DNA of 64,000 nt from Lactiplantibacillus mudanjiangensis. Lineage in GTDB: Bacteria; Bacillota; Bacilli; Lactobacillales; Lactobacillaceae. Positions 271 to 43,063 of the stretch are shown piece after piece. The notes beneath the pieces are model-generated. The model was not told the DNA's origin, made no database searches, and was given only the letters and a program-made list of their open reading frames with translations. Numbering within the stretch: the first letter of the stretch is position 1; each line of letters starts with the position of its first letter. The position numbers and the translations under genes are program-made. The stretch lies in assembly GCF_005405385.1 (NCBI RefSeq), contig NZ_BJDY01000003.1, positions 496,001 through 560,000 on the forward strand, in the 5' to 3' direction.

Positions 271-678
271 GCCACCTTCGTCAGCCAGTGATTCTGCCAG
301 CTGTGGGGACCGGCGTCAGCCAAAAAGCGGTCTGACACCTCGCCTAAGCGCCTAGCAAAAGCCACTAGTCTCTCAGGTCGTCCACGTTGATTTACCCGAA
401 CTAACAACGTCTTCACGGCTGGCGCCATCACGGGCTGACTGCGGTTAATTGGTTGTAAAATAAGTGACACTTAATTTTGTATAACGGTGAGTTAGTTAGT
501 CGAGAGTGAGTCCATGATGGGCCCAGCCGTGGGAATCTCTTGGCGGTTTACCGCCTAGAGATCGGTACTTTTGAAACGCGGGTTGGGCGGTTCAAAACGA
601 AGGGCAAGACCGCTGTTTGGCTTGACCTGTCCGTCCACAGCGTTCCGGCTCAGCAGGGGCGAACGGCAGACGGCAAGT
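271..678 (+). repeat. Structured intergenic repeat, copy A (dimer, most diverged)
   Basis: Member of the large folded repeat family of this window. It starts GCCACCTTCG and ends near CGGCAAGT. The left half carries the core GCCAAAAAGCGGTCT at 319-333, and the right half carries the same core inverted near 606-621 (AGCCAAACAGCGGTCT on the minus strand). It keeps helices such as ACGTTG (384-389) with CAACGT (405-410). It is clearly more diverged than copies B-E, including at its terminal repeats. Open frames crossing it are not judged to be genes. Confidence 0.75.
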
Positions 679-735
679 TTTAGCATTAGTCAATCTTTTA
701 AATAACATAAAAAATCCGCTAAAGGAGCTTTTTAC

Positions 736-1359
736 ATGACAACTTTTTATATTGTTCGCCATGGTCAAACCACGGCGAATGCGCAGAACTTAAAACAAGG
801 CACGATTAATACGGCGATTACCCATTTGAATGCGGTTGGTGAACAGCAAGCACAGGCTTTACATGCGGCGTTTGATATTAGTTTTGCCGACCGTTTAATT
901 TGTAGTCCATTAGACCGAACCAAAGCGACAGCGGCTTTGTTAAATCATGGTCGCGAGTTACCGATGACTACCGATGATCGATTATTGGAAATCTCATATG
1001 GTCAATGGGATGGGCAAAAAAATGATGAGTTAAAAGCACGCTATCCACAATATTTTGATCAGGCGTTAAATGATGTCTTACCAACTTACGTTGAGGCTGC
1101 GACCGATGGGGAAACATTTGACCAGGTGATTGCGCGTGTGACGGCCTTTTTAACGGATACGGCAGCTAAGTATCCTGATGATCAAGTTATTGTCGTTACG
1201 CATGGCTTTACGGTCAAGGCGATGGTCTTAGCGGTGTTACAACCGACTGATCCGATGACGTTACCAGAACCAGAAAATACGAGTGTTACCAAGATTACAA
1301 TCGATTCAAAGACCCAACATCAATATTTGAGCTACTATAATCGTCAGATTGGTTTTTAG
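736..1359 (+). CDS. Histidine phosphatase (phosphoglycerate mutase-like)
   Basis: A 207-residue cytosolic protein of the histidine phosphatase superfamily. The N-terminal motif VRHGQT holds the catalytic phospho-accepting histidine (RHG about residues 8-10). A second histidine sits in VTHGFT near residue 156, and a conserved Arg follows in SPLDRTKATA. Length fits broad-specificity PGM-like phosphatases rather than glycolytic cofactor-dependent mutase (about 230-250 residues). An AAAGGAG site precedes the ATG. It is followed after 12 nt by the GyrI-like gene, so the two probably form an operon. The natural substrate cannot be read from the sequence. Confidence 0.85.
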   Translation: MTTFYIVRHGQTTANAQNLKQGTINTAITHLNAVGEQQAQALHAAFDISFADRLICSPLDRTKATAALLNHGRELPMTTDDRLLEISYGQWDGQKNDELKARYPQYFDQALNDVLPTYVEAATDGETFDQVIARVTAFLTDTAAKYPDDQVIVVTHGFTVKAMVLAVLQPTDPMTLPEPENTSVTKITIDSKTQHQYLSYYNRQIGF

Positions 1360-1371
1360 GAGGACAACTTG

Positions 1372-1989
1372 ATGAAATATGAATGGCGTAAACAGGATAA
1401 AGTCCTCTATCTACCCAAAGCCGTGGCGACGCCAATAACGGTGCCCATGTTCAACTACTATACGATTAGTGGTCACGGGGACCCTAATGATACTGAGTTT
1501 AGCGAGCGCACGGCAGCATTGTACGCCGCAGCCTATGGGATTCGAATGATGCCTAAAAGTGGGGTCACTCCGGACGGCTACTATGAATATACCGTTTTTC
1601 CATTAGAAGGGATTTGGACACTTGATCCGGCTGATGTTCATGATGATGGCAGCTTTGATAAGGCTGATCTGCAATATAAAATCATGCTACGACAACCAGA
1701 TTTTGTCACGCCTAAACTCGCTGCCAGTAATTTAACGGCAGTGCAAGCTAAGAAACCGAATCCGTTTAATGCTGACGTACAATTTGAAATGTTAACTGAT
1801 GGTGACTGTTTACAAGTTTTACATGTTGGGTCGTATGATGATGAACCGGCAAGTTTTCAAAAATTAGCGGCCTATGCGGAAACGCATGACCTAAAAAGAC
1901 GAACATTAGCACATAAAGAAATTTATTTATCAGACCCCCGGCGGGCCGTTGCGGCTAAGCGCAAGACGGTTTTACGCTGGTTTGTATAG
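1372..1989 (+). CDS. GyrI-like small-molecule-binding domain protein
   Basis: A 205-residue protein resembling the GyrI-like/YdeI group: a stand-alone effector-binding domain related to the C-terminus of AraC-type regulators. The N-terminus (AVATPITVPMFNYYTISGHGDP) and the C-terminal region (RTLAHKEIYLSDPRR) match that family as I know it. There is no DNA-binding domain. An in-frame TTG lies at 1369, but the ATG at 1372 has the better spacing (8 nt) to AGGAGG at 1358-1363. It lies 12 nt after the phosphatase, probably co-transcribed. Ligand unknown. Confidence 0.75.
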   Translation: MKYEWRKQDKVLYLPKAVATPITVPMFNYYTISGHGDPNDTEFSERTAALYAAAYGIRMMPKSGVTPDGYYEYTVFPLEGIWTLDPADVHDDGSFDKADLQYKIMLRQPDFVTPKLAASNLTAVQAKKPNPFNADVQFEMLTDGDCLQVLHVGSYDDEPASFQKLAAYAETHDLKRRTLAHKEIYLSDPRRAVAAKRKTVLRWFV

Positions 1990-2011
1990 GTAACAAGTGC
2001 GAACAATTAAC

Positions 2012-2039
2012 TTGACCAATTTTTAATTGGGGCTACAAT
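2012..2039 (+). promoter_or_regulatory. Promoter of candidate small RNA
   Basis: TTGACC (2012-2017), a 16-bp spacer and TACAAT (2034-2039) in a gap with no ORF. The predicted transcription start is about 2046. Confidence 0.6.
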
Positions 2040-2045
2040 AGTCAT

Positions 2046-2203
2046 AATGCTAATCAAACCGCAGTAAAACTTGGACTTCGCTAGTCACTGTTGCTCTCAG
2101 GTCCAAGGTGTGACACAACGTTAGACAGCAACAGCCGGAATGTATAATTCTAGGTCTCCTAAGTAGAGCAATCCTTACCTAAAGTGAGGACTGCTCTTTT
2201 CGT
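2046..2203 (+). ncRNA. Candidate small RNA with interleaved stems and own terminator
   Basis: A gene-free gap holds promoter, structured core and terminator in that order. CTTGGAC (2070-2076) can pair with GTCCAAG (2101-2107), and CTGTTGCT (2088-2095) with AGCAACAG (2127-2134). The two pairings interleave, as in a pseudoknot or an either/or switch. A hairpin from AGAGCA (2165-2170) to TGCTCT (2192-2197) with a T-run then acts as terminator. The product would be about 155 nt. I do not recognise an Rfam family. It could instead be a 5' leader of the aldo/keto reductase downstream, but that gene has its own TATAAT at 2210-2215. Confidence 0.5.
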
Positions 2204-2254
2204 TTGGGCTATAATTAAGGATGAGATAAAAAATTGTTAAAAAGGGTGACTTGA

Positions 2255-3244
2255 ATGACATATTCAGCAGCTGAAACACGTTATCAAGATTTACCGATTC
2301 GCCGTGTTGGTCGGACCGGCTTACAATTACCTGCCGTTTCCTTAGGGTTATGGCGTCACTTTGGTGATGAGGCGCCGCTTGCTAATTCACGTGAAGTGGT
2401 CTTAGATGCTTTCGACCACGGGGTATTTAGTTTTGATTTGGCCGATAATTATGGTCCATCGAAAGGGTCTGCCGAACAGACCTTTGCCCAAATTTTAAAA
2501 CGTGATTTAAAGCCTTATCGTGAAGAATTAGTGATTACGACAAAAGCCGGTTATCCAGCATGGCCGGGACCTTATGGGGCATTTGGGTCACGAAAAGCCT
2601 TAGTCGGTGCTTTAGATCGAAGTTTGCGGCGGATGGATTTAGACTATGTTGATATTTTCTATTCCCATCGTCCCGACCCTAACATTGATTTACAGGAGAC
2701 GGCTCAAGCGTTGGACTTATTAGTCCGGCAGGGTAAGGCCTTGTATGTGGGAATTTCAAACTACGACCAAAAGCAAACCGCTGAAATGGTCAGTTATTTT
2801 GAAGACATGCACACCCCATTTACGGTGAACCAATACTCATATAATATGTTGAACCGCCAAGCTGAAACCAATGGTTTGTTGAAGTTTCTTGGTAAACACA
2901 ACGCTGGCTTAGTGGCGTATGGTCCGTTATCCGAAGGTTTGTTATCGGATCGTTATTTGAAAGGTATTCCGGCTGATTTTCCGATTCATCGGACTAACAA
3001 ATATGTCCTCGAAAATGGCACTGAAAAAGTTGTTTCACAGCTGAATGCGCTGAATGTGATTGCCCAACAGCGTGGTCAAACGCTGGCGCAAATGGCCTTA
3101 GCGTGGTTGTTGCGGACGGATACGGTTGCTAGTGTGATTATTGGGACGACGAGCGTGGCTCATTTGCATGCGGATCTTGCAGCGACCGAACAGTTAGATT
3201 TTAGTGCAGACGAACTTGCAGCAATTGACAAAATTTTGAATTAA
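2255..3244 (+). CDS. Aldo/keto reductase, YghZ (Gpr)-like
   Basis: A 329-residue NADPH-dependent aldo/keto reductase. Recognisable parts are the N-terminal RRVGRTGLQLP beta-hairpin, the catalytic Asp/Tyr pair in FDLADNYGPS, the Lys in VITTKAGY and the His in IFYSHRPDPN. The C-terminal NADP-binding loop is the IIGTTSVAHL region. Length and the long YPAWPGPYG insert fit the L-glyceraldehyde-3-phosphate reductase-like group, which detoxifies small aldehydes. A terminator hairpin follows, then a MerR-type gene, a pairing common for aldehyde-responsive reductases. Confidence 0.85.
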   Translation: MTYSAAETRYQDLPIRRVGRTGLQLPAVSLGLWRHFGDEAPLANSREVVLDAFDHGVFSFDLADNYGPSKGSAEQTFAQILKRDLKPYREELVITTKAGYPAWPGPYGAFGSRKALVGALDRSLRRMDLDYVDIFYSHRPDPNIDLQETAQALDLLVRQGKALYVGISNYDQKQTAEMVSYFEDMHTPFTVNQYSYNMLNRQAETNGLLKFLGKHNAGLVAYGPLSEGLLSDRYLKGIPADFPIHRTNKYVLENGTEKVVSQLNALNVIAQQRGQTLAQMALAWLLRTDTVASVIIGTTSVAHLHADLAATEQLDFSADELAAIDKILN

Positions 3245-3256
3245 TTGACTTTAATT

Positions 3257-3298
3257 AACGACCAGTATCGCATTAGACGGGTACCGGTCGTTATTTTC
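3257..3298 (+). terminator. Terminator after aldo/keto reductase
   Basis: AACGACCAGTATC pairs with GGTACCGGTCGTT (13 positions, one mismatch, one G-U) and is followed by ATTTTC. It lies between the reductase stop and the MerR start. Confidence 0.6.
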
Positions 3299-3316
3299 AT
3301 AGAAATGAGGATTGGT

Positions 3317-3802
3317 ATGGAAACTTATAGCATTGGTGAAGTTGCCAAAATGTTAAACTTGTCGGTTGAAGCGATCCGATATTACGATCATGAAGGATTG
3401 TTACCATTTGTGAAGCGTGACTCGGGTGGTCGTCGGCGCTTTACCACGGATAATATTCAATTAATGCAGATGATTTTGGACCTAAAGGCGGCTGGGGTGC
3501 CTATTAAAGATATTGCCTACTTTGTGTCATGGCGTTTAGATGGTGATGAATCGCTGACCACACGATACGACTTTTTAGATGAACACGAACAAGTCCTTGA
3601 ACAAAAGATTCAACAATTGCAGGCTTCGTTAGGTTATTTACGATTTAAAAAGTGGTATTACAAGACTGCCGCTGCGGCGGGCACTGAAGCTATTCACCTT
3701 TTGCCAGATTCCAAGCAGGTTGATCCCAAGACGTATCAAGAATACGATCAATTATTGCAACAGGGTCAAACGGCGAAAGACTTAGGTAATATTTCGGAAT
3801 AA
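3317..3802 (+). CDS. MerR family transcriptional regulator
   Basis: A 161-residue regulator. The winged helix-turn-helix is at residues 3-70 (YSIGEVAKMLNLSVEAIRYYDHEGLL, then RRRFTTDNI) and a long coiled-coil dimerisation helix at about 85-120. It lacks the cysteine pattern of metal sensors, so an AdhR/NmlR-like aldehyde or electrophile sensor is the likeliest class, consistent with the reductase upstream. The start at 3317 is chosen because GAGG (3307-3310) sits 6 nt ahead. The longer in-frame ORF from 3245 runs through the terminator hairpin. It may control the upstream reductase and the downstream permease. Confidence 0.85.
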   Translation: METYSIGEVAKMLNLSVEAIRYYDHEGLLPFVKRDSGGRRRFTTDNIQLMQMILDLKAAGVPIKDIAYFVSWRLDGDESLTTRYDFLDEHEQVLEQKIQQLQASLGYLRFKKWYYKTAAAAGTEAIHLLPDSKQVDPKTYQEYDQLLQQGQTAKDLGNISE

Positions 3803-3883
3803 AGTACTTGACCTGTAGCTAACTATAGCTTGTAAGCTAGCCTCATAACTTATTTAAAATAAGCAATTGAGGAGTGGTTAAAC

Positions 3884-4816
3884 ATGATTATTTTGGCATT
3901 AATTCCCATTTTAATGGGTAGTGGTTTAGCGATGCAAACGGCGGTTAATTCAAAATTACGTCAATATGTCGGGTCACCTTATTTGGCATCAACGGTGTCA
4001 TTCACTATTGGGGCGTTATTTCTAGTTATCTTGACTTTAGCGACTGGTGTTAATCCGCTAGTTGCTTGGTCAACGTTTACACAAAATCCATGGTGGATCT
4101 GGCTAGGCGGTCTCTTGGGCGTGCTGGGGATGACGGTTAACTTATTATTATTTCCTAAGCTAGGCAGTATTCAAACTGCTGTTTTGCCATTGTTCGGTCA
4201 GATCATCATGGGTGTCTTGATTGATCAATGGGGGCTATTTGGGTCGCCCAAGTCAGGATTAACGGTGGTTAAAGCAATTGGTGTGTTATTAGTCGCGGTT
4301 GGCATGGTCGTGGCCACGGGCATGGTAACGCGACAATCGACAGCCAAGTCACAACCAAAGCAATCACATTTGTTTTTACAATTACTCGGGATTGGTTCAG
4401 GTTTCTTGATGGCGAGTCAGACTGCCATCAATGGGCATTTAGGTGTGGTGTTAGGGTCGTCTGTTCATGCGGCGATGATTTCTTTTACAGTTGGTGCGGT
4501 TCTGCTTTTTATCTTGTTGGCCGGTTTACACTTGCCATTAACGCAATTGACGCCAGCTTTTAAAGCGGGTACTCACTATTGGTGGTTATGGATTGGCGGC
4601 TTTCTAGGTGCGCTTTATGTCTTTGGTAGTGCTTGGTTAGTGCCACAAATTGGGACCGGTCAAGTGGTGGTGATTGCACTATTTGGGCAATTGTTCTTTA
4701 GCGCTTTGATCGATCAATTCGGTTTGTTTGAATCTTTAACAAACCGGGTGGTGTTGACACGAATTATAGGCTTAGTGACGATGTTTGTTGGGGTTGCTGG
4801 CATTCATTTTCTTTAG
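3884..4816 (+). CDS. DMT-superfamily transporter, duplicated YdcZ type
   Basis: A 310-residue integral membrane protein with about ten hydrophobic helices. It is an internal duplication: residues 1-150 and 165-310 both begin with a GSGxxMxxQTAxNxxL motif followed by SFTxGAxxL and end with GQxxxxxLIDQxGLF. This is the two-repeat form of the YdcZ (DUF606) family. Substrate unknown. GAGGAG precedes the ATG. It lies 81 nt after the MerR gene on the same strand and may be part of its regulon. Confidence 0.8.
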   Translation: MIILALIPILMGSGLAMQTAVNSKLRQYVGSPYLASTVSFTIGALFLVILTLATGVNPLVAWSTFTQNPWWIWLGGLLGVLGMTVNLLLFPKLGSIQTAVLPLFGQIIMGVLIDQWGLFGSPKSGLTVVKAIGVLLVAVGMVVATGMVTRQSTAKSQPKQSHLFLQLLGIGSGFLMASQTAINGHLGVVLGSSVHAAMISFTVGAVLLFILLAGLHLPLTQLTPAFKAGTHYWWLWIGGFLGALYVFGSAWLVPQIGTGQVVVIALFGQLFFSALIDQFGLFESLTNRVVLTRIIGLVTMFVGVAGIHFL

Positions 4817-4848
4817 GCTGGTTATTTTCTGAAAATTTGAAACAAATT

Positions 4849-4884
4849 TTAACCCTTTTTCTAAAAGGACCCTATAATTAGGGT
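4849..4884 (+). promoter_or_regulatory. Promoter with dyad over the -10 box
   Basis: TATAAT at 4873-4878 has a weak TTAACC at 4849-4854 (18-bp spacer). A perfect dyad ACCCTA-TAAT-TAGGGT (4869-4884) is centred on the -10 element, the geometry expected of a repressor operator for the 72-residue protein that follows. Confidence 0.5.
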
Positions 4885-4916
4885 GTACCAAAAATTAGAA
4901 GGGAAGTTGTTTTAGT

Positions 4917-5135
4917 ATGGCTACAGCAGTTGAAATGAACAGTATGTTAGACGAAAAGATGACGGACGTGTTTGATTGGAGCGATTCCAAGTTACCCGTA
5001 CGGGATGCGATCTGGAATCACTTTATGGACGCCGATAGTCATGATACTGACAAGACGGCTGATGAGGTAGCGCCTTATATGAGTATGGATCAAGCTAAGC
5101 TAAAGAGCGAAGTTGAAAAACTCCTAAAGGCTTAA
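4917..5135 (+). CDS. Small acidic hypothetical protein
   Basis: A 72-residue soluble, acidic protein (many Asp and Glu, short Lys-rich end EKLLKA) with predicted helical character and no signal or membrane segment. I do not recognise the family. It stands alone between the permease and the LSm-like gene, with its own promoter and an operator-like dyad, so it is probably a regulated monocistronic gene. GAAGGGA precedes the ATG at somewhat long spacing. Confidence 0.65.
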   Translation: MATAVEMNSMLDEKMTDVFDWSDSKLPVRDAIWNHFMDADSHDTDKTADEVAPYMSMDQAKLKSEVEKLLKA

Positions 5136-5229
5136 CTAAAATAACGACCGGAACGGCCTAATTTTTGAAAAGTACGAATTGCCAGCTAGGTAATCCGTAT
5201 TTTTTTACATAAATTTTCATTTAAATGAA

Positions 5230-5260
5230 CGAACACTTGTTCTGGAAACTGTGCTATAAT
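5230..5260 (+). promoter_or_regulatory. LexA/DinR-type SOS box and extended -10 promoter
   Basis: CGAAC-ACTT-GTTC (5230-5242) matches the Gram-positive LexA box core GAAC-N4-GTTC. It sits where the -35 element should be, 12 bp upstream of an extended -10 (TGCTATAAT, 5252-5260). LexA bound there would block the promoter of the small gene at 5293. Confidence 0.6.
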
Positions 5261-5292
5261 CGAGATACTTATTTGCGATGAGGTGATCGAGG

Positions 5293-5514
5293 ATGGAACA
5301 GTTGAAGACAATTGAAGCGTCGTTGTTACAGGCCTATGAGATGAATTGCGTGGTGCAATTAACCTTGACGAATGGCTATCGGCCTAGTGGATTAATTGCG
5401 GCCGTTAATGGGACGTCGCTGTTGCTGAATCAAAAAGCTGGGGTTGTTAATCAAATCAAAATCAGCGAGGTCACCGAAATTACTTTCTTGAAAGAGAGTT
5501 GGTGGCAACGCTAA
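5293..5514 (+). CDS. Small LSm-fold protein, YolD-like or Hfq-like
   Basis: A 73-residue protein: a short N-terminal helix (residues 1-18) followed by a five-strand pattern (VVQLTLTNGYRPSGLIAAV, then TSLLLNQ, NQIKISEVTEITFL). The NGxxxxGxI turn and the closing I-x-I-S-E-V strand fit a small Sm/LSm barrel. YolD-family proteins, often SOS-induced beside repair polymerases, share this C-terminal layout, and Hfq is a more distant comparison. The LexA-type box in its promoter favours YolD. No repair polymerase is adjacent. A bidirectional terminator follows directly. Confidence 0.55.
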   Translation: MEQLKTIEASLLQAYEMNCVVQLTLTNGYRPSGLIAAVNGTSLLLNQKAGVVNQIKISEVTEITFLKESWWQR

Positions 5515-5553
5515 AAACGAGGTCGTGACTTCACAGCACGGCCTCGTTTTTTT
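5513..5553. terminator. Bidirectional terminator
   Basis: AAAAACGAGG...CCTCGTTTTTTT hairpin between two convergent genes (5293-5514 plus, 5553-5903 minus), with A and T tracts on both sides. Confidence 0.85.
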
Positions 5554-5903
5554 CAATCTTTGAATTTAGTGGCAACTTCTTGCTTTCGAAATCGCGTGAT
5601 TTTTTGAATCAAGGCCACCGGAACTGGTTGATCTAGTGGCAGTTGAATGGCACCCTTACTAGTCGGATAATCGGCGAGTTCATCAGAAAAAGCCGTGATC
5701 GCACTAGGGGTTGGGTAGAGGCCAATGTGTTTTTTAAATAGCGCAAAATGAATGATGTTTTCGTGCCAATAAAAGGTCGGCATTTGATACTTAATCCGTT
5801 CTTCAGCTTGCGGTAATTCAGTCTTAATCGTGTGATAAATGGTGGTCAAGGCCGATTGACGTTCAGTTGGTTGTGCGTGAATATAAGTTTCAATGGGGGT
5901 CAT
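5553..5903 (-). CDS. DUF1801 / YdhG-like protein
   Basis: A 116-residue small alpha/beta protein of the DUF1801 family (YdhG-like, related by fold to frataxin-type iron chaperones in some annotations). Diagnostic segments are AEERIKYQMPTFYW near residue 35, FALFKKHIGLYP in the middle and the C-terminal SKGAIQLPLDQPVP. Its start overlaps the last 14 nt of the upstream NFACT-R gene, so the two are probably translationally coupled. Biochemical role uncertain. Confidence 0.8.
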   Translation of the reverse strand: MTPIETYIHAQPTERQSALTTIYHTIKTELPQAEERIKYQMPTFYWHENIIHFALFKKHIGLYPTPSAITAFSDELADYPTSKGAIQLPLDQPVPVALIQKITRFRKQEVATKFKD

Positions 5904-6768: not shown

Positions 6769-6832
6769 GAGTGACCGTCCTTTATTTCGAATTCGTTAAA
6801 GTTATTATACCGCGTGGAAAATAATTCAGCAC

Positions 6833-6844
6833 TTTTCATGAAAA
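6833..6844. promoter_or_regulatory. Palindrome upstream of ackA
   Basis: A perfect 12-bp palindrome TTTTCATGAAAA just upstream of a TATGCT -10-like element of ackA and between the divergent NFACT-R and ackA genes. Operator candidate, protein unknown. Confidence 0.3.
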
Positions 6845-6878
6845 TTCGGTATGCTATTAGGTAGGAGTGTGATAAATC

Positions 6879-8464: not shown

Positions 8465-8626
8465 GGTCGGCTGAAATCTGGTTCTGTGGGGAACGGCTCC
8501 AGCCATAAAGCGGTCTGGGGCCTCGCTTCGAAGACTAAAAACCAGTCTTCAAAGACGTCCCACAACGTAAGGTGGCAAAAAAACGCCACCCAACGTTGTT
8601 GACACGGAACCTGATTTCAACCGGCC
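8465..8626 (+). repeat. Structured intergenic repeat, single unit F
   Basis: A single-unit (about 160 bp) relative of the large repeat family. The outer helix pairs GGTCGGCTGAAATC (8465-8478) with GATTTCAACCGGCC (8613-8626), with a few wobble or mismatched positions. Inside are the family core GTGGGGAACGGCTCCAGCC, AAAGCGGTCT and CCTCGCTT, the hairpin GAAGACT...AGTCTTC, and nested helices ACAACGT (8562-8568) with ACGTTGT (8593-8599) around GGTGGC...GCCACC. Confidence 0.65.
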
Positions 8627-14412: not shown

Positions 14413-14482
14413 TCTAAAAGTTGAAAGTTAAGTATGGCGGTAAAAACTTTACTAGAATTGACTTAAGTCATGCTAAATTGAT

Positions 14483-14888
14483 CACCTACGCCAACCAGCG
14501 ATTCTGCCGGCGGTGGGGACCGGCTCCAGCCAAAGTGCGGGCTTCCACCTCGCTTTTAAGCCTAGCCTAAACCGCTAGTCTTAAAAGTCGTCCACAGCGT
14601 AAGCTCGGAAAAATCATCCGGACTAACGCTGCTTTCACGGCCGGCGCCATCACTGGCTGACTCCGGTTGTATTGTAAATACCAATCAATTTTGTAATCAC
14701 CATCATAACCGAGAATGAGTCCACATTGAGCCCAGCCGTGGGAAGCTCTTAGCGATTTATCGCTTAGCGCTTGGCGTTTTTGAAACACGGACTTGGTGGC
14801 TCAAAACGATGGTTCAGACCGCTTTTTGGCTGAACCCGGTCCGCCCACAGCGTTCCGGCTCAAGGTGGGCGAACGGTAGGTGGCAAGT
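14483..14888 (+). repeat. Structured intergenic repeat, copy B (dimer)
   Basis: A well-conserved copy between the reductase and greA. It starts TCACCTACGCC and ends CGGTAGGTGGCAAGT. The left half has core CCAGCCAAAGTGCGGGCTT; the right half has the inverted core, with hairpin GTTCAGACC...GGCTGAAC. The variable helix is CAGCGT (14595-14600) with ACGCTG (14626-14631). The sequence upstream (TTGACTTAAGTCATGCTAAATT) is also shared with copy C, so the element extends slightly beyond the terminal repeat. Confidence 0.85.
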
Positions 14889-14954
14889 AGGTGGTGAATA
14901 CTTGCCATATCAACGATTATTGCTAAAAAGTAGCTTTCAACCGTTAGTTTTAAT

Positions 14955-18544: not shown

Positions 18545-18690
18545 GTTAGTTCTGCCCCCTTTGTACTTTTAAGTATAGGAGTCTGGGAACAGAAAACAAT
18601 GGACTAGATCAAATTACTTATGAAAGGTTGGAAGCAGTTTTTAGTGACAATTACTGGCGTGACGAGTGTTTACTGATCAAACATAGACTT

Positions 18691-19086
18691 GCCACCTACC
18701 GTTCGCCCACCTTGAGCCGAAAAGCTGTGGGCGGACCGGTTCAGCCAAAAAGCGGTCTGAACCGTCGTTTTGAACCACCCAACCCGTGTTTCAAAAGCGC
18801 CAAGCTCTAAGCGATAAATCGCTAAGAGATTCCCACGGCTGGGCTCAATATGAGCTCACTCTCGATTATATTAGTGATTGATTAGTCTTTGCGATACAAC
18901 CGGAGCCAGTCAGTGATGGCGCTGGCCGTGAAAATATCGTTAGTCCGGGTGTTTTTTCCGGACTTTACGATATGGACGACTTTTGAGACTAGCGGTTTTG
19001 GCTAGACTCAAAAGCGAGGTGGAAGCCCGGTCTTTGGCTGGAGCCGGTCCCCACAGCCGGCAGAATCACTAGCTGGCGTAGGTGGC
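18691..19086 (-). repeat. Structured intergenic repeat, copy C (dimer, inverted)
   Basis: A well-conserved copy in minus orientation, with perfect 9-bp terminal inverted repeats GCCACCTAC (18691-18699) and GTAGGTGGC (19078-19086). The half-unit nearest 18691 carries GTTCAGCCAAAAAGCGGTC. The variable helix is ATATCGTTAG (from 18934) with the matching strand ending ACGATAT (18973). It fills most of the gap between the dipeptidase start and the small membrane gene. No target-site duplication is visible. Confidence 0.88.
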
Positions 19087-19134
19087 TAATTTAGCATAAC
19101 TCAAGTCAATACTGCTAACACTATAGTGATCTAG

Positions 19135-25310: not shown

Positions 25311-25452
25311 ACCGGTGGACAGCCACAATGCTGGAACGCTCTGGGGCATTTTCGAGCCAAAAGGCGGTCTCGAAAAGTGCCCTTAGCCTAAACGCCATAG
25401 TTCGGCGCTAAGGCTAACGAAAGGGCTGAGCATTGTGACTATCCACCTCACG
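25311..25452 (+). repeat. Structured intergenic repeat, single unit G
   Basis: A short relative of the repeat family, between mtlD and trxA. The outer helix pairs CACAATGCT (25324-25332) with AGCATTGTG, and GTGGA with TCCAC. The core hairpin is CATTTTCGAGCC...GGTCTCGAAAAGTG with AAAAGGCGG in the loop; a second hairpin TTAGCCT...AAGGCTAA follows. It resembles a single half-unit of the dimer copies. Confidence 0.55.
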
Positions 25453-31641: not shown

Positions 31642-31643
31642 GT

Positions 31644-34516: not shown

Positions 34517-34645
34517 TGACCAGGCCTCCTATCATCATAAACTACCTCGAGTATAAGCCTAAATAGGCTTTGCGGCACACAATTAGTTCATTAATTAAAG
34601 GTTGAAAGTTAAATATGGCAGCCATATTGATGTTGGCTTAAATTA

Positions 34646-35054
34646 GTCACCTACGCCAGCCAGTGATTCTGCCGGCTGTGGGGACCGGCTCCAGCCAAAG
34701 TGCGGGCTTTCACCTCGCTTTTGAGCCTAGCCAAACCACTAGTCTCAAAAGTCGTCCATATCGTAAAGTCCGGGGAAAACACCCAGACTTTACGATATTT
34801 TCACGGCCGGCGCCATCACTGGCTGACTCCGGTTTTATTGCGAATACCAATCAATTTCGTAATCACCATCATAACCGAGAGTGAGCTCACATTGAGCCCA
34901 GCCGTGGGAGGCTCTTAGCGATTTATCGCTTAGAGACTGGCGTTTTTGAAGCACGGGTTTAGTGGTTCAAAAACGACGGTTCAGACCGAATTTTGGCTGA
35001 ACTGGTCCGCCCACAGCGTTCCGGCTCAAGATGGGCGAACGGTAGGTGGCAAGT
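34646..35054 (+). repeat. Structured intergenic repeat, copy D (dimer)
   Basis: A well-conserved copy between divergent genes. CACCTAC (34648-34654) and GTAGGTG (35042-35048) are its terminal inverted repeats. The left half folds through AGCCAGTGAT...ATCACTGGCT, CTTTTGAG...CTCAAAAG and a perfect 13-bp helix ATATCGTAAAGTC (34758-34770) with GACTTTACGATAT (34786-34798). The right half has TTGAGCC...GGCTCAA, AGCGAT-TT-ATCGCT and GTTCAG...CTGAAC. Confidence 0.88.
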
Positions 35055-35071
35055 ATGACTGTTTTTGAAGG

Positions 35072-35101: not shown

Positions 35102-35134
35102 AAGAAGTAATTGAGAACGAGAGTAGGGGTTAAA

Positions 35135-35968: not shown

Positions 35969-35974
35969 GTTATT

Positions 35975-36690: not shown

Positions 36691-36692
36691 TT

Positions 36693-37103: not shown

Positions 37104-37109
37104 GTCAAA

Positions 37110-37156
37110 GAACCATCCATCCCGGAGAAACTAGCCGAGATGGATGGTTCTTTTTC
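37110..37156. terminator. Bidirectional terminator
   Basis: GAACCATCCATC...GATGGATGGTTC with TTTTT, between lpdD and the convergent phosphatase gene. Confidence 0.9.
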
Positions 37157-37173
37157 GCTGATAGTGAATTAGG

Positions 37174-38055
37174 TTATTTTAAATAAAGTTGTTGTAGTTT
37201 TTTTATGTCGTGATTCGTTAAACCAATCCCTTTGATCAGAAAATTATGCATTGAGCCGTAATCTTTTTTGATTAAATGATATGACGTATTGAGATAAGCC
37301 ACTTTAACATCATTCATCTCTTTGGCCCGTTGATAAGTTAACGACCCTTTCTTTATCCCTTTGGCAGATAAGGCAGCGAGGGCTTTTTTATTCGTGGTGG
37401 CACGAAACTTGTTAGAAAGTAGGAAGTCCTTGTTGATGGTTTTACGATCAACACCTAAAGCCGATAAAACTAGGACTGATCCCATGCCGGCACGATCTTT
37501 CCCGGCGGAACAATGCCAGAGCACGGCCTTGTTTTTAGGATTGGTGAGCAGAAATTTGAACAATTGATGATAAGCTTTGCGCGACGTTTTGGTCGTTACG
37601 AATTGACTGTAGGTCGTTTCCATGACTTTAGTGCCAGACTCGGTTTTACCAATTTTTGAAAATTGATGCATGACCGGATCAAAAACGTATTTAACACCTT
37701 TGATCTTAACATCAGGTGATTTTTTCGCTTCAGCATCGGTGCGTAGATCAATATCGGTGGCTAAGTGATAAGTTTTAACCAACTTCTGCGCATCTTTTTT
37801 GGTTAGGGTGTTCAAAGCGGCCGAACGTAATAACTTGTGCTTCTTGATAGTCTTACCGGATTTAGTCCGATAACCACCTAAATCACGGACGTTAATGGCA
37901 CCTTGTAACTTAATCTGTTTTGCTTTTGGTTGCTTCGCGGTCTTAACCGTCGTCGCTTTTTTGGTCGCCGCGTTAGCCATTAATGGCGTAATGGCACTAG
38001 TTCCGGTTGTAATACCGGATAAAGCAAGCATGGCAATAATCACTGATCTTTTCAA
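37174..38055 (-). CDS. Secreted tyrosine/dual-specificity phosphatase
   Basis: A 293-residue exported phosphatase. A Sec signal peptide covers residues 1-29 (KRSVIIAMLALSG..., cleavage near MANA). The mature protein starts with a Lys/Thr-rich stretch, then INVRDLGGYRT (typical of this PTP class), general-acid region DLRTDAEAKKSP and the P-loop HCSAGKDRAGMGS with catalytic Cys and Arg. The start TTG at 38055 has GGAGGGG 6 nt ahead. Related enzymes include the Listeria LipA and mycobacterial PtpB groups; substrate here unknown. Confidence 0.85.
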   Translation of the reverse strand: MKRSVIIAMLALSGITTGTSAITPLMANAATKKATTVKTAKQPKAKQIKLQGAINVRDLGGYRTKSGKTIKKHKLLRSAALNTLTKKDAQKLVKTYHLATDIDLRTDAEAKKSPDVKIKGVKYVFDPVMHQFSKIGKTESGTKVMETTYSQFVTTKTSRKAYHQLFKFLLTNPKNKAVLWHCSAGKDRAGMGSVLVLSALGVDRKTINKDFLLSNKFRATTNKKALAALSAKGIKKGSLTYQRAKEMNDVKVAYLNTSYHLIKKDYGSMHNFLIKGIGLTNHDIKKLQQLYLK

Positions 38056-38158
38056 TGGATTCCCCTCCAATTAAAGAATAGCTAAAGCATAACAGTTACA
38101 TGTAAAGCTCATATATCTATTTGGTAAAGATTATGTAAGGGGATTAGACCGGGTAAGT

Positions 38159-38201
38159 TAAAAAACGCGCCAAATGTTGTGATATCAACATTTGGCGCGA
38201 T
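38159..38201 (-). terminator. Terminator of Rrf2 gene
   Basis: CGCGCCAAATGTTG-ATATCA-CAACATTTGGCGCG followed on the minus strand by TTTTTT. Confidence 0.9.
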
Positions 38202-38216
38202 TCTCGTGAGCTTTGA

Positions 38217-38657
38217 TTAAGATAAAGCTTCTTTTTTAGCTTGTTCGACTAAGAGATTGTCAACGATATCTTGCAAACTGGTTTTGGCTAGTCGAGCCTC
38301 GGCTGCAGTTTGGGCATCCTGATAATATTGTCGTAAGACCGTTTGAATGTTACCACCGACAATGCAGTCTGGATTCGTTTTAGGATCAACTGAGAAAAGC
38401 GGCTTGTCTCCTTCAACGGCATAAAAGATAGCCAGTAGCGAAATTTGATCAAGTGGTTTAGCCAAAGTGGGTTGAGCCGAACCAGGGACTGTTTTGATTA
38501 GTCCAGCCTGTCGTAGTTTACCCATTAAACGGCGAACGACGACGGGACTGGTTTCAATGCTACTGGCGATGAGATCACTCGTTAGATGTTGTTGATCGTA
38601 AATCTTGAGAAATGCCAATAGATGAATGGCATCGCTGAAACGTGTTGAAACCCGCAT
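38217..38657 (-). CDS. Rrf2 family transcriptional regulator
   Basis: A 146-residue Rrf2-type winged-helix protein: RVSTRFSDAIHLLAFL at the start, HTH DLIASSIETSPVVVRRLMGKL and wing region PGSAQPTLAKPL. IscR/NsrR members have three clustered Cys for an iron-sulfur cluster; this one has a single Cys (NPDCIVGG), so it resembles the cluster-free YwnA group. Target unknown. AGGAAG precedes the ATG. Divergent from the TetR gene at 38840. Confidence 0.85.
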   Translation of the reverse strand: MRVSTRFSDAIHLLAFLKIYDQQHLTSDLIASSIETSPVVVRRLMGKLRQAGLIKTVPGSAQPTLAKPLDQISLLAIFYAVEGDKPLFSVDPKTNPDCIVGGNIQTVLRQYYQDAQTAAEARLAKTSLQDIVDNLLVEQAKKEALS

Positions 38658-38790
38658 TTGATCACTTCCTGTAACTGTATTAATTACTGTGATTATACGA
38701 TATCCAGCTATTTAAAGCAATTGTCAGGACTAATCAAAAAAATCATGTAACTTTTCAAAAAAACTTGTCGCTTATTATCAGTAAATCAGT

Positions 38791-38823
38791 TATGATGTGG
38801 GTAATAAATTGAGCAGTTACTGC
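38791..38823 (+). promoter_or_regulatory. TetR-gene promoter with putative operator
   Basis: TATGAT (38791-38796) followed by TTGAGCAGTTACTGC (38809-38823), which contains the dyad GCAGT-T-ACTGC. The same TGAGC-GT-ACT motif recurs twice in the mntH leader, suggesting one regulator for both. Confidence 0.45.
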
Positions 38824-38839
38824 AAAAAGGAGTTCGAAC

Positions 38840-39517
38840 ATGAGTGAAATTGAAACCATCCAAGCCTATTATGCGGCCTCGTTGGGAAAGGATGGTCAGA
38901 TTACCAAAACCCAACGCAAGATTCTATCTGCAGCGTTAGCCTTGTTTGCCGAGAAAAGTTACGAAGAAGTGGGGACCCGTGAAATTGCTGATCGAGCAGG
39001 GGTTGCCGAAGGAACTTTGTTTCATAATTTTACTAATAAAAATGGGATCTTGAAGGCCATTATGCAGCCAATCGTTCAGAATATTTTGCCAGCCATGCTC
39101 AATGATCTGGATGAAGCCGTTCTGGCTAGCAAGACGCAAACGTTGAATGCGTTTGTTGTTGCCTTAGTGACTGATCGCGTGAAATTCGTGGCTCAGAATC
39201 GCGCGTCACTAGAAGTGATTTTATCGCAATTTTTCAATAACGCAGCTGACCGGGCAGCGGTGCTCGGGATGGTGTCGCCGAGTGTTTTACAACAAGCCGA
39301 GGTCGTGATGGATCGGTTGAAAGCGACGGGCGAATTAGTCGATTGGCCGAACACGATGATTTTGCAATTATTATTCTCAACGTTGGGCGGTTATTTGGTG
39401 AAACGAGTTTTGTATACCGAGACAGCGCCAACGGATGATGAGACGACGATTCGGTATCTCAGTGATTTCTTAGTTAATGGTCTCAGCCCACGCCGAATGC
39501 CGCTATTACTAGAATAG
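38840..39517 (+). CDS. TetR family regulator
   Basis: A 225-residue regulator: N-terminal HTH at residues 22-66 (KILSAALALFAEKSYEEVGTREIADRAGVAEGTLFHNFTNK) and an all-helical ligand-binding C-terminal domain. A 20-residue N-terminal extension precedes the HTH. AAAAGGAG precedes the ATG. It lies 185 bp upstream of mntH on the same strand and shares an operator-like motif with the mntH leader, so it is a candidate mntH regulator. Ligand unknown. Confidence 0.85.
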   Translation: MSEIETIQAYYAASLGKDGQITKTQRKILSAALALFAEKSYEEVGTREIADRAGVAEGTLFHNFTNKNGILKAIMQPIVQNILPAMLNDLDEAVLASKTQTLNAFVVALVTDRVKFVAQNRASLEVILSQFFNNAADRAAVLGMVSPSVLQQAEVVMDRLKATGELVDWPNTMILQLLFSTLGGYLVKRVLYTETAPTDDETTIRYLSDFLVNGLSPRRMPLLLE

Positions 39518-39566
39518 CCGCACTGAAAAGGCGTTTTAGGAAAGCCGAAAAAATAAATGAAAATAG

Positions 39567-39594
39567 TTGACTAATTTATTAATGATGCTATACT
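39567..39594 (+). promoter_or_regulatory. mntH promoter
   Basis: TTGACT (39567-39572), a 16-bp spacer, TATACT (39589-39594); predicted start about 39601, leaving a roughly 100-nt leader. Confidence 0.65.
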
Positions 39595-39609
39595 ACCTAG
39601 TGGAATTAA

Positions 39610-39667
39610 AGTGACCGCTCAATATGTAACTGAGCAGTCACTGTTGAGGATCACAGTAGTCCACAAC
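39610..39667 (+). promoter_or_regulatory. mntH leader: two hairpins / operator arms
   Basis: AGTGACCGCTCA (39610-39621) pairs with TGAGCAGTCACT (39631-39642), one mismatch. A second stem GTTGAGGA...TCCACAAC (39643-39667) abuts it. It could be a DNA operator just after the start site or an RNA element. It does not look like the yybP-ykoY manganese riboswitch. Confidence 0.45.
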
Positions 39668-39702
39668 CTGAATTCTAAACCAATAGAAGCGAGGGTGTCA
39701 TC

Positions 39703-41103
39703 ATGAAAAAACTAGCAAAAACGAAGGATCGTTCAGCGATGGTTGCCACTAAGGGTAGTACCGGCATTCATTCGTCTGGGTCTGATAGTAAGAGTTTGGA
39801 CGAAGTTAATGGGAGTATCCGTGTTCCCAAGGATGCCAATTTCTGGCGTACCTTAGTGGCCTATACGGGGCCAGGGGCGTTAGTTGCGGTTGGTTATATG
39901 GACCCTGGTAATTGGATTACGTCAATTGCCGGTGGGTCACAATATAAATATGCGCTGTTATCAGTTATTTTACTTTCAAGTTTAATTGCGATGTTATTAC
40001 AAGCAATGGCTGCCCGGTTGGGGATTGTGACGGGGAAAGATTTAGCACAACTAACCCGTGAACGGACATCTAAAGGGATGGGTATTTTTCTTTGGGTCGT
40101 GACAGAATTAGCCATTATAGCGACTGATGTGGCCGAAATTATTGGGTCCGGGATCGCGTTGAAGTTATTATTTGGATTTCCACTGGTCGTCGGGATTTTA
40201 ATTACGACCGCTGATGTTTTGATCTTATTACTCTTAATGAAATTAGGCTTCCGTAAAATCGAAGCAATTGTCGCCACTTTAGTCGCTGTGATCTTGTTCG
40301 TCTTCTTATACGAAGTCATCATTTCACAGCCAAACGTCCCTGAAATGTTAAAAGGGTATGTGCCAACAACCAGAATTGTCAGCAATCAATCCATGCTATA
40401 TCTGGCTTTAGGGATTGTTGGGGCCACGGTTATGCCACATAACTTGTATCTAGGGTCATCAATTTCGCAAACGCGGGCCGTTGATCGTAGTGATGAAAAA
40501 GAAGTGGCTAAGGCCGTTAAGTTCACGACGATTGACTCTAACATTCAATTATCAGTGGCCTTCGTGGTTAACAGTTTGCTCTTAATCTTAGGGGCAGCGT
40601 TATTCTTTGGGACTAAGGGTGACTTAGGCCGATTCGTTGATTTATATAACGCATTAGGTAATAGCAAGATTGTTGGTTCCATCGCCAGTCCAGTGCTTAG
40701 TATGTTGTTTGCGATTGCGTTGTTATCTTCAGGCCAAAGTTCCACGATTACCGGGACGCTTTCCGGGCAAATCATCATGGAAGGGTTCATTCGGTTGAAG
40801 ATGCCACTCTGGGCTCAACGGTTATTAACTCGGTTAATCTCCGTTACACCAGTGCTGGTTTTCGCCATTTACTATCATGGTAACGAAGCAAAAATTGAAA
40901 ACCTCTTGACGTTGTCTCAAGTCTTCTTAAGTATCGCGTTACCATTCGCGATGATTCCACTAGTGATGTTTACAAGTGATAAGAAGCTGATGGGAAACTT
41001 CAAGAACCGCGAGTGGGTTAAATGGACGGCTTGGGTTATCACCGCGATCTTAATTGTCTTGAATATTTACTTGATTTTGCAGACCGTTGGGATTGTGCAC
41101 TAA
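39703..41103 (+). CDS. mntH: Nramp-type manganese transporter
   Basis: A 466-residue, 11-helix proton-coupled Mn(II) importer. Helix-1 motif [12 protein letters not shown] provides Asp and Asn metal ligands; helix-6 motif [15 protein letters not shown] carries the Met/His signature; [17 protein letters not shown]-like [14 protein letters not shown] is also typical. A longer than usual hydrophilic N-terminus (about 45 residues) precedes helix 1. Lactobacilli use high Mn in place of superoxide dismutase and keep several mntH copies. GAGGG precedes the ATG. Confidence 0.93.
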
Positions 41104-41126
41104 TTAAAATTTAAAAATTAACGTCA

Positions 41127-41162
41127 AAGATGTCATTTGAAATTGAATGGCATCTTTTTTTA
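41127..41162 (+). terminator. Terminator of mntH
   Basis: AAAGATG-CATT...AATG-CATCTTTTTTT hairpin. Confidence 0.75.
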
Positions 41163-41213
41163 TGTAAACCAAGCTAAGGCCTGATTAGCGAGCGTGGTAA
41201 TCTTCCAAATCTG

Positions 41214-41837
41214 TTATCCAGCCCAAGCGAGCGCTACCGGCGTCGGCTGCAGTAGATTAGCAAGTAGTGGTAGAATGCCACGATCAAGATCGTAGAGGTC
41301 CGTAATTTTAGCGGGTGGTGTCAATTGTTGTGCGCGTTGCAAGAGCGTTGATTGCGTGTAAACGGTATGATGACCCGCAATCGTGAGGGTAGCTTCAGGC
41401 GTTTGTACGAGACTAGGGGCTAGGTCTTGCACTAAATAAGCAAAGTTAGGCGCTGTGTTAAGAATTAGGGTCAACAGACTGACCTGTTGTGGATCGAGTT
41501 GAGTGGCTAACTGCTGTGTTGAAGTTGGTGTATAAACCATGGCGGTGTAGTGGTCGTTAACTAGTGATGGTTTGGTTGTTGGTGCCGCCAAGGTGATATT
41601 AATGCCTAACTCCCAACTTGCGAGTAAGACGATCGGGAGGGCTGCTGAATTATCGAGACTGACGAGCATGTTTTGACCAGCAGTAACGGCTTGTTGTTGT
41701 AGACTGCTTTTACATAAGGCGATGTCTTCTAAGAGATCGGCACCGGTATACCAAATACCTTGTGTCCGACTCTTAATCAACGCTTCTTGACGATGTAATT
41801 GAAGTTGGGTGGTGATTTGATTGGTTAATTCGGACAT
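41214..41837 (-). CDS. Short acyl-CoA synthetase-like N-terminal domain protein
   Basis: A 207-residue protein resembling only the N-terminal lobe of AMP-binding (ANL) enzymes: TQGIWYTGADLLEDIALCKSSL, GQNMLVSLDNSAALPIVLLASWELGINITL. The P-loop (TSGTTGxPK), adenylation motifs and C-terminal lobe are missing, so it should not adenylate. The remainder is Gln/Leu/Thr-rich. The start at 41837 has AGGAGG 8 nt away. It lies 25 nt after a secreted-protein gene on the same strand, likely an operon. A decayed or repurposed synthetase is the best reading. Confidence 0.5.
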   Translation of the reverse strand: MSELTNQITTQLQLHRQEALIKSRTQGIWYTGADLLEDIALCKSSLQQQAVTAGQNMLVSLDNSAALPIVLLASWELGINITLAAPTTKPSLVNDHYTAMVYTPTSTQQLATQLDPQQVSLLTLILNTAPNFAYLVQDLAPSLVQTPEATLTIAGHHTVYTQSTLLQRAQQLTPPAKITDLYDLDRGILPLLANLLQPTPVALAWAG

Positions 41838-41862
41838 AAGCACGACCTCCTAAGAAATTGGT

Positions 41863-42165
41863 TTAAACAGTAGGTTGGTATTTGCTCTTATTTAAACTTT
41901 GAGCACTAGTATCAACAGTTGCGAGAATTTGGCTTTGGGTCGTCTTGGTGATTAACCGAGTTGGTTTAGGGGTCAAGTTGTGTCGGCTAGGCGTCGTGCT
42001 ACTAGTAGCTAAGTTAGTGTCGCGGTTGACTTTGTTAACAAGGGTCGTTGATGTTTGGTTAGGGGTCGTATTAGTGGTGGTATCGGCTAAGGCAGTCCCC
42101 GTGGTAGCAAATAAGGTCCCGGCAGTTAATAAGGTTAATGTCACTTTAGCAAATAAATTTTTCAT
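41863..42165 (-). CDS. Small secreted Thr/Asn-rich protein
   Basis: A 100-residue protein with a clear Sec signal peptide (residues 1-27: FAKVTLTLLTAGTLFATT, cleavage after ALA). The mature part is disordered, about one third Thr and Asn/Ser (TTTNTTPNQTSTTL), with no wall-anchor motif. AAGGAG precedes the ATG. Function unknown. Between the synthetase-like gene and a hypothetical gene, all on the minus strand, so they may be one transcript. Confidence 0.6.
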   Translation of the reverse strand: MKNLFAKVTLTLLTAGTLFATTGTALADTTTNTTPNQTSTTLVNKVNRDTNLATSSTTPSRHNLTPKPTRLITKTTQSQILATVDTSAQSLNKSKYQPTV

Positions 42166-42212
42166 AATGATCGAACTCCTTTTAGTTGGTTGATTTAAGT
42201 TAGTTTTTTAAG

Positions 42213-42461
42213 TTAAGCAGTTGGTAAAATCCAGTCGTTAGAGAGTAGTTGGTGGAACTTACGACCCATCGGCACCCATAATTGGTTCTTACATAAGTCA
42301 CGAGCGCTTTCCCAGAAGAGCGGGTCGCTAAGTTGGTCGTCACTCAATTTAATTTGAATGTAGTCACCTTGTTCAGTCTTAGCAATGATTAATGGGTAAA
42401 CCACTTTAACGAGGTTGACTGCGGTGATATTTTTAATTTTTGGATCGGTATCAAGTAACAT
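42213..42461 (-). CDS. Hypothetical protein
   Basis: An 82-residue soluble protein with mixed alpha/beta pattern (VYPLIIAKTEQGDYIQIKL then a Trp-containing helical end). No recognised family. GGAGC precedes the ATG. First gene of the probable 42461-41214 transcript. Confidence 0.55.
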   Translation of the reverse strand: MLLDTDPKIKNITAVNLVKVVYPLIIAKTEQGDYIQIKLSDDQLSDPLFWESARDLCKNQLWVPMGRKFHQLLSNDWILPTA

Positions 42462-42578
42462 TTGATTAGCTCCTTGCTTTATTGAATGACTTTAGTTTAC
42501 CGACTATTGGGTCTTTCAACTACCGAGTTATCGTAAGCATTAAATAAGAATTTCTTAGAAACCAACTTATGTTTAGAC

Positions 42579-42632
42579 AAAACGACCGTTAAACCTGATT
42601 AGATCAAGGTTTAACGGTCGTTTATCTTTTTT
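42579..42632. terminator. Strong hairpin with T-run
   Basis: AAACGACCGTTAAACC...GGTTTAACGGTCGTTT, followed on the plus strand by ATCTTTTTT. Genes on both sides are minus-strand, so it may end read-through from the histidine kinase or an unseen plus-strand transcript. Confidence 0.65.
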
Positions 42633-42669
42633 AGAAAGTTATTTTTCACCAAAAACTAGTTATTGACTT

Positions 42670-43063
42670 GCCACCTACTGTTCACCCACATTGAGCCGGA
42701 ACGCTGTGGGTGGACCGGTTCAGCCAAAAAGCGGTCTGAACCGTCGTTTTGAACCACCCAACCCGTGTTTCAAAAGCGCCGAGCTCTAAACGATAAATCG
42801 CTAAGAGCCCCCCACGGCTGGGCTCAATGTGAGCTCACTCTCGGTTAAACTAGTGGGTTAACTAGCAATAAGAAACTAACCGGAGCCAGCCAGTGATGGC
42901 GCCGGCCGTGACGACATCGTTAGTCCGGTGATTTTTCCGGGCTTACGATGTGGACGACTTTTGAGACTAGCGGTTTAAGCTAGTCTCAAAAGCGAGGTGG
43001 AAGCCCGAACTTTGGCTGGAGCCGGTCCCACCGCTGGCAGAATCACTGACTGGCGTAGGTGGC
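42670..43063 (-). repeat. Structured intergenic repeat, copy E (dimer, inverted)
   Basis: A well-conserved copy in minus orientation with perfect terminal inverted repeats GCCACCTAC (42670-42678) and GTAGGTGGC. The half near 42670 has GTTCAGCCAAAAAGCGGTC. In the other half a 14-bp perfect helix GAGACTAGC...GCTAGTCTC is present, and the variable helix is ACATCGT (42914-42920) with ACGATGT (42945-42951). Confidence 0.88.

What the first reader, a model, noticed from the sequence alone, without database searches (positions are those of the whole stretch)
271..43063. Family of large folded intergenic repeats
Five copies of about 395-410 bp (271-678, 14483-14888, 18691-19086, 34646-35054, 42670-43063), in both orientations, share terminal inverted repeats GCCACCTAC/GTAGGTGGC and a conserved order of hairpins. 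All lie between genes and none contains a credible ORF. Copies B-E are close to each other by eye and A is diverged. That density (five in 43 kb) implies many genomic copies. They are far longer than REP/BIME units, and I know no described family that matches. Possible roles are a non-autonomous mobile element, a transcript-end or mRNA-stability structure, or a nucleoid/replication site.
Basis: partly seen in the sequence, partly recalled or inferred. Interest (0 to 1): 0.85.

Follow-up and report, generated by a model that had tools for sequence, protein, structure and literature searches.

The report
IS4-mobilised MITE carrying folded hairpin pairs
The five big repeats look like copies of a gene-less jumping DNA element, and the folded block inside them belongs to a high-copy family of multi-hairpin repeats, apparently undescribed, that occurs in many genera of the lactic-acid-bacteria family Lactobacillaceae.

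Summary
Of 38 TIR-bounded copies examined, 30 have flanking 8-mers matching at 7-8 positions (mismatched controls 1.4%). The same ends bound IS4-family insertion sequences in sister species, and gap B lacks the element in all five relatives compared. So here it is a MITE, probably dormant: no transposase at E<=1e-30, only a deleted IS remnant.

The core is two ~190-nt multi-hairpin units, head to head. A covariance model finds units in 15 of 21 genomes of the genus and 54 of 251 of the family, 10 of 40 genera, mostly as inverted pairs where two are close. In units from at least five genera, 37 of 39 base pairs change on both sides (472 cells; shuffled 109±11). Rfam has no credible match. G·T pairs do not exceed A·C mismatches, so I infer that the fold matters as DNA or on either strand, not as one fixed-strand RNA. 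Outside IS4-borne forms the mobiliser is unknown. Kind: known; family and folded unit: new as far as searched.

The parts
266..678 (+). Copy A: diverged unit pair (units 295-427 + and 518-646 -); termini lost
   Evidence: Profile 358 bits; R1 96.2 and 49.8 bits; 5 and 6 mismatches to the terminus
8478..8616 (+).
   Evidence: R1 101 bits
14406..14413 (.). Left target duplication of copy B (ATTTTAAT; 7 of 8 shared with the right side)
   Evidence: (L024 = this copy)
14414..14427 (+). Left terminal inverted repeat of copy B (1 mismatch)
   Evidence: (C3:510414-510427)
14475..14891 (+). Copy B core: units 14505-14649 + and 14727-14856 -
14934..14947 (-). Right terminal inverted repeat of copy B (1 mismatch); duplication TTTTAAT follows
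18687..19092 (-). Copy C core: units 18719-18847 + and 18917-19062 -; termini degenerate
   Evidence: 3 and 4 mismatches
25333..25434 (+). Single short unit, weak match
   Evidence: R1 34.2 bits, E 1.7e-6
34595..34608 (+). Left terminal inverted repeat of copy D (1 mismatch); right one lost
   Evidence: (C3:530595-530608)
34640..35060 (+). Copy D core: units 34670-34815 + and 34893-35022 -
   Evidence: folds
42666..43068 (-). Copy E core: units 42698-42826 + and 42897-43039 -; termini lost
   Evidence: 4 and 5 mismatches

Best explanation
In this genome the repeats are a non-autonomous DNA transposon (MITE) of about 540 bp. SHOWN: shared terminal inverted repeats CTAAAGGTTGAAAG; ~8-bp target duplications; the same termini on IS4-family insertion sequences of sister species; internally deleted copies with the termini, two of them sharing one deletion junction; sites that lack the element in relatives. 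INFERRED: an IS4-family (DDE) transposase acted in trans on the termini and amplified the element, and the source was later lost. Copies lie just past gene ends. The interior is an inverted pair of ~190-nt multi-hairpin units from an older superfamily that occurs in many Lactobacillaceae and seems to have been taken up between IS4-type ends at least twice. INFERRED: the fold serves the element at the DNA level, as hairpins or a cruciform in either strand, for instance in its propagation or by insulating it from transcription; which of these is unknown.
For: TIR 132 places, control 0. Duplications 30 of 38 own elements vs 1.4% null, 9 of 13 in G001 vs 1.3%. IS in G004: 451-aa transposase, NF049925 482 bits vs cutoff 250. 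Termini within 1 mismatch at both ends of IS copies in G004, G012, G001, G013, G017; duplication of 8 bp in G012 and 7 bp in one G001 copy. IS remnant in own genome. Shared deletion junction in L032 and L035. Gap B without a unit in G004, G003, G017, G001, G012, and only 51-81 bp long in the first three. Covariation. Inverted pairs 23 of 29, 19 of 20, 16 of 16, never the opposite order. G.T vs A.C 158/143, 66/71, 41/75.
Against: No transposase at E<=1e-30 in the own genome, so present activity is not shown. The IS copy of G004 itself has flanking 8-mers agreeing at only 4 of 8, those of G013 and G017 show no clear duplication, and a second G001 copy lacks the termini. 8 of 38 own elements fall below 7 of 8. 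Unit pairs in G005 and other genera have neither these termini nor a duplication, so the MITE explains the window's form, not the superfamily. Copies that lost the termini keep the fold as well as intact ones (87.0 vs 86.3% Watson-Crick pairs, 8 vs 8), which leaves room for a host-side role. Four of the seven occupied window gaps hold some unit in one relative, which could also mean old, conserved sites. The DNA-level inference rests on a wobble count without a working RNA control.
Confidence: 0.82

Rival explanations
1. The unit is a functional structured RNA (transcript-end, mRNA-stability or regulatory RNA), and the mobile element merely spreads it.
For: Strong covariation and recurring loop sequences. 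Placement just after gene ends: 22 of 42 own pairs in convergent gaps vs 20 of 116 background gaps; in G005 the gene upstream of the unit is on the same strand in 49 of 75 cases.
Against: G.T pairs do not exceed A.C mismatches on the modelled strand (158/143, 66/71, 41/75). The last ratio would mildly favour the opposite strand. Both strands fold alike. Units come as inverted pairs, so either strand holds one unit of each sense. No credible Rfam match.
Confidence: 0.2
2. The covariation needs no selection: template switching during replication (quasipalindrome correction) keeps copying one hairpin arm onto the other, which yields perfect stems with double changes on both strands alike.
For: Stems are mostly Watson-Crick with few intermediates and no strand preference. 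Unpaired columns are less conserved than paired ones (0.72 vs 1.02 bits).
Against: Some unpaired positions are highly conserved (8 of 55 columns at 1.5 bits or more), as is the whole branched layout in at least five genera; arm copying alone would not keep these.
Confidence: 0.2
3. Host-domesticated interspersed sites, REP/BIME-like, for nucleoid or replication functions.
For: High copy number, intergenic placement, inverted pairs, fold intact in copies whose termini have decayed; G004 and G017 share 5 of their 9 and 8 occupied gaps.
Against: No match in 6 of 21 genomes of the genus. Three of seven occupied window gaps hold no unit in five relatives; the other four hold one in a single relative, and where compared by blastn the own and relative units there do not align beyond short stretches. 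About 140 kb of C2 holds only one fragment.
Confidence: 0.07
4. A fold-back element moved as single-stranded DNA by an HUH/Y1 transposase, as REPs are by RAYTs.
For: Branched hairpins with conserved loops; no target duplication outside the IS4-borne forms.
Against: Y1_Tnp occurs in 13 of 21 genomes but not in the unit-rich G001, G004, G007, G009, G011, G020, and does occur in the unit-free G012, G016, G018, G019. Own copies have ~8-bp duplications.
Confidence: 0.06

Closest known systems
Pneumococcal BOX, RUP and SPRITE repeats (PMC3049150; abstract and section list seen)
   Same: Interspersed intergenic repeats with extensive secondary structure, judged parasitic by their authors, spread unevenly among related species
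   Different: Other genus; here ~190-nt branched units in inverted pairs, in 10 genera sampled. RUP's link to an IS630-type enzyme is recalled; here the enzyme is IS4-family. Sequences were not compared
IS4-family insertion sequence with the same termini (L071, G004; relatives L092, L093)
   Same: Terminal repeat CTAAAGGTTGAAAG, ~8-bp duplication in the G012 and one G001 copy; likely source of the transposase
   Different: 1565 bp and codes for a 451-aa transposase; the MITE shares the terminal repeat and carries the folded pair instead
REP/BIME elements of enterobacteria (recalled)
   Same: Palindromic units in inverted pairs, intergenic, high copy
   Different: Units ~190 nt and branched, not ~20-40 nt single hairpins; no Y1 transposase partner by distribution
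Bacillus cereus bcr repeats and other bacterial MITEs (recalled)
   Same: Short, gene-less, folded, some with duplications
   Different: Conserved branched unit shared in several genera and found inside and outside the IS4-type ends; sequences not compared

Membership tests
MITE (own-genome form) | Terminal inverted repeats | tested here: met
   132 places, control 0; 38 bounded elements
MITE (own-genome form) | Target-site duplication | tested here: met
   30 of 38 at 7-8 of 8 vs 1.4% null; a cruder flank test did not separate own copies from control (43% vs 37%)
MITE (own-genome form) | Short and without transposase gene | tested here: met
   201-556 bp; no ORF of 80 aa or more over the window copies
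MITE (own-genome form) | Autonomous relative with the same ends | tested here: met
   IS4-family IS in G004 and four other genomes
MITE (own-genome form) | Intact transposase in the same genome (activity, not definition) | tested here: not met
   0 matches at E<=1e-30; remnant only
MITE (unit pairs in G005 and other genera) | Target-site duplication | tested here: not met
   17 of 52 pairs with both ends recognisable, no excess at 2-9 bp; G005 exceeded its control (55% vs 24%) but at no consistent distance
REP/BIME | Inverted pairing of palindromic units | tested here: met
REP/BIME | Cognate Y1 (RAYT-type) transposase | tested here: not met
Rfam RNA family | Match above gathering score | tested here: not met
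   0 in the window; best of five other loci 24.4 bits against gathering 86, E 0.049
Structured RNA | Covarying stems | tested here: met
Structured RNA | G.U in excess over A.C on the functional strand | tested here: inconclusive
   the tRNA control did not work
Structured RNA | Transcription | not testable with these tools
   No expression data
BOX/RUP/SPRITE | Sequence relation to those repeats | not tested
   Their sequences were not fetched

The most novel reading that the evidence does not exclude
The inverted pair of ~190-nt units is itself a distinct class of genetic element spread through much of Lactobacillaceae. Its branched DNA fold, with conserved loops, is recognised in either strand by a still unidentified protein. 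It spreads without a target duplication in many lineages and has been captured independently between IS4-type ends in at least two.
Probability: 0.3. Interest if true: 0.85.

Novelty: new variant of a known kind. Interest (0 to 1): 0.7.

Why it matters
Many copies, over a hundred in several genomes, of a conserved multi-hairpin unit lie in genomes of food and plant lactic acid bacteria (named hits include Levilactobacillus brevis, Lactiplantibacillus fabifermentans, Furfurilactobacillus rossiae and Companilactobacillus), yet Rfam has no family for it. If the fold is kept at the DNA level, as the wobble counts suggest, it offers a natural system for asking what selects for branched DNA structure. 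It also shows structured repeats being picked up by an insertion sequence, and gives annotators a model for these intergenic regions.

Tried and rejected
RNA-family match: rejected. Y1 partner: rejected on distribution. Plasmids: no match for two queries. Viruses: one contig of the viral collection holds the motif, not followed up. Target duplication outside the IS4-borne forms: sought over 130-base flanks and at the ends, not found. In one search the own set did not beat its control by that crude measure (43% vs 37%); only the TIR-anchored test did. In the same call G005 (55% vs 24%), G214 (25% vs 12.5%) and G240 (83% vs 57%) exceeded theirs, at no consistent distance from the ends. tRNA wobble control: failed, too few tRNAs. 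One 44-bit match in another family of the order (G374) is unconfirmed.

Biases: the first 30 own loci are the best BLAST hits to copy D; the 20 stretches were chosen for TIR hits, so the 38 elements are partly selected for TIRs; one search's G001 set includes one spurious 1499-bp pairing. Only (16 copies; window plus C2:1-400 kb) is unselected. Gene positions come from a crude ORF caller; of 93 units, 9 lay in crude ORFs and 9 lacked a flanking gene, leaving 75; 42 of 44 pairs classified. One search's G005 set is 20 of the 23 '+-' pairs. A4-A6 were fitted to the model and lean towards its structure; A3 was aligned without it, but its structure was chosen on that alignment. In A5, 36 of 66 G.T cells come from one column pair.
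Full report
WHAT IS THERE. The five copies are real. Copy D folds far better than shuffles on both strands (z about -12). No ORF of 80 aa or more overlaps a copy. A structure model built here (R1) finds twelve units in the window: five pairs (A-E) and two singles, 8478-8616 and 25333-25434.

TRUE ENDS. This 14-mer occurs 132 times in the own genome with at most one mismatch, against 0 for the reversed control. Of 38 TIR-bounded elements in the fetched own stretches, 30 have flanking 8-mers that agree at 7 or 8 positions (best of three offsets), against 1.4% for mismatched left/right pairs; in G001 it is 9 of 13 against 1.3%. In the window only copy B keeps both termini and a duplication. Gap B has no unit in any of five relatives and is only 51-81 bp long in G004, G017 and G003, against 588 bp here.

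THE MOBILISER. In G004 the same termini enclose a 1565-bp insertion sequence with a 451-aa transposase (NCBIfam NF049925 transpos_IS4_4, 482 bits, cutoff 250; Pfam DDE_5 and DDE_Tnp_1). In the genus 5 of 21 genomes hold the transposase at E<=1e-30, some only in pieces, and the own genome none. In all five, at least one copy has the termini at both ends within one mismatch; flanking duplications are clear in G012 (8 bp) and one G001 copy (7 bp), not in G004 (4 of 8), G013 or G017, and a second G001 copy lacks the termini. The own genome keeps an internally deleted remnant of the IS. Two internally deleted MITE copies share one deletion junction, best explained by movement after the deletion, so the ends seem to suffice and the fold not to be required.

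THE FOLDED UNIT. The core is two ~190-nt units facing each other. Each has an outer stem, an inner stem and a junction with three hairpins; one G005 unit folds with z = -9.4 and -9.3 on its two strands. On 18 hand-chosen units 117 cells change on both sides of a pair, against 34.8±4.6 in shuffles and at most 29 in slid controls. On 59 units from this genus and at least four others, 472 such cells against 109±11, 37 of 39 pairs varying on both sides, slid controls at most 110. Loop and junction sequences such as AGCC...GCGGTCT recur, but unpaired columns are on average less conserved than paired ones (0.72 vs 1.02 bits).

REACH. In the family 54 of 251 genomes, 10 of 40 genera, match. In a draw from the order 6 of 246 match: the own genome, four others of its family, and one single 44-bit match elsewhere. 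Where two units lie close, they are arranged forward then reverse in 23 of 29, 19 of 20 and 16 of 16 cases, one locus being shared by the last two sets; the order reverse-forward did not occur. In one search, 47 of 93 units had no such partner above threshold.

STRAND. In stems, G·T pairs and A·C mismatches number 158/143 (128 matches), 66/71 (93 units of G005) and 41/75 (59 units). A one-strand RNA would be expected to tolerate G·U and avoid A·C (general knowledge; the planned tRNA control failed). I read this as conservation of the fold at the DNA level or on either strand; 41/75 alone would mildly favour RNA from the opposite strand.

CONTEXT AND TURNOVER. Of 42 own pairs with classified neighbours 22 lie in convergent gaps, 17 in tandem, 3 in divergent; background gaps are 20, 67 and 29. 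In tandem gaps most lie close behind the upstream stop. Over the window's syntenic region, three of the seven occupied own gaps (8 kb, B, D) hold no unit in G004, G003, G017, G001 or G012; the other four hold one in a single relative each: A in G017, C and 25 kb in G004, E in G003. At E the G003 pair is plainly of another subfamily, and blastn does not align own and relative units at these four gaps beyond short stretches (two best subjects kept per unit). The closer pair G004 and G017 share 5 of their 9 and 8 occupied gaps, with most unit identities there between 84 and 98%. So there is inheritance between close species and turnover, perhaps with reuse of sites, further away, as for a mobile element. 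In 16 unselected full-length own copies the fold is as intact where TIRs are lost (87.0% Watson-Crick pairs, 8 copies) as where both remain (86.3%, 8 copies), which leaves room for constraint after insertion.

TWO LAYERS. G001 carries unit pairs within the same IS4 termini but with unrelated sequence between terminus and unit, so capture by IS4-type ends seems to have happened at least twice. G005 lacks the exact terminus altogether; its unit pairs and those of the other genera sampled show no end-anchored duplication. How they spread is unknown.

LITERATURE. Searches, judged from their listings, gave no paper describing such a repeat in Lactobacillaceae. Searched for passages only: PMC2267715 (a stem-loop survey; L. 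johnsonii is its only Lactobacillus mention), PMC8632094 and PMC12306157 (no mention). PMC3049150 was seen as abstract and outline. Subscription journals are not held, so this is not proof of absence. REP/BIME, bcr and RUP details are recalled.

VERDICT. Mobile element: strong. IS4-family MITE in this genome: strong, present activity not shown. Fold function: open, DNA level favoured. The kind (structured MITE or interspersed repeat) is known; the family, its reach and its conserved paired units are new as far as could be searched.

Noticed in passing
L037:1259-1643 (own genome C2): Internally deleted remnant of the IS4-family element: both ends and the first and last stretches of the transposase, 75-76% identical to the G004 enzyme.
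   Followed up: partly
own genome C2:140001-280000 (L058-L064): Seven 20-kb stretches with only one weak unit fragment (L059), against about one copy per 20-25 kb elsewhere in C2:1-400 kb.
   Followed up: no
window 42462-43161 and G003 orthologous gap: G003 has a unit pair of another subfamily in the gap where the window has copy E; G004 and G017 have none.
   Followed up: partly
window 61786-62322 and 62683-63267: Two neighbouring reading frames on the - strand share a repeat of 252 nt at 71%; probably tandem paralogues.
   Followed up: no
window 50937-55292: A 1451-aa reading frame with internal repeats around 53967-54270.
   Followed up: no
L385:255-288 (viral contig of 4936 bases): The only viral-collection contig with the unit's motif; whether it is phage or chromosomal DNA was not checked.
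   Followed up: no
L387 (G374, another family of the order), around 1501-1622: Single 44-bit match of R1 outside the family; chance, transfer or distant relative.
   Followed up: partly
L072-L083 (G001): TIR-bounded elements of 336-544 bp with constant ends and variable interior lengths, i.e. serial internal deletions that keep the termini.
   Followed up: no
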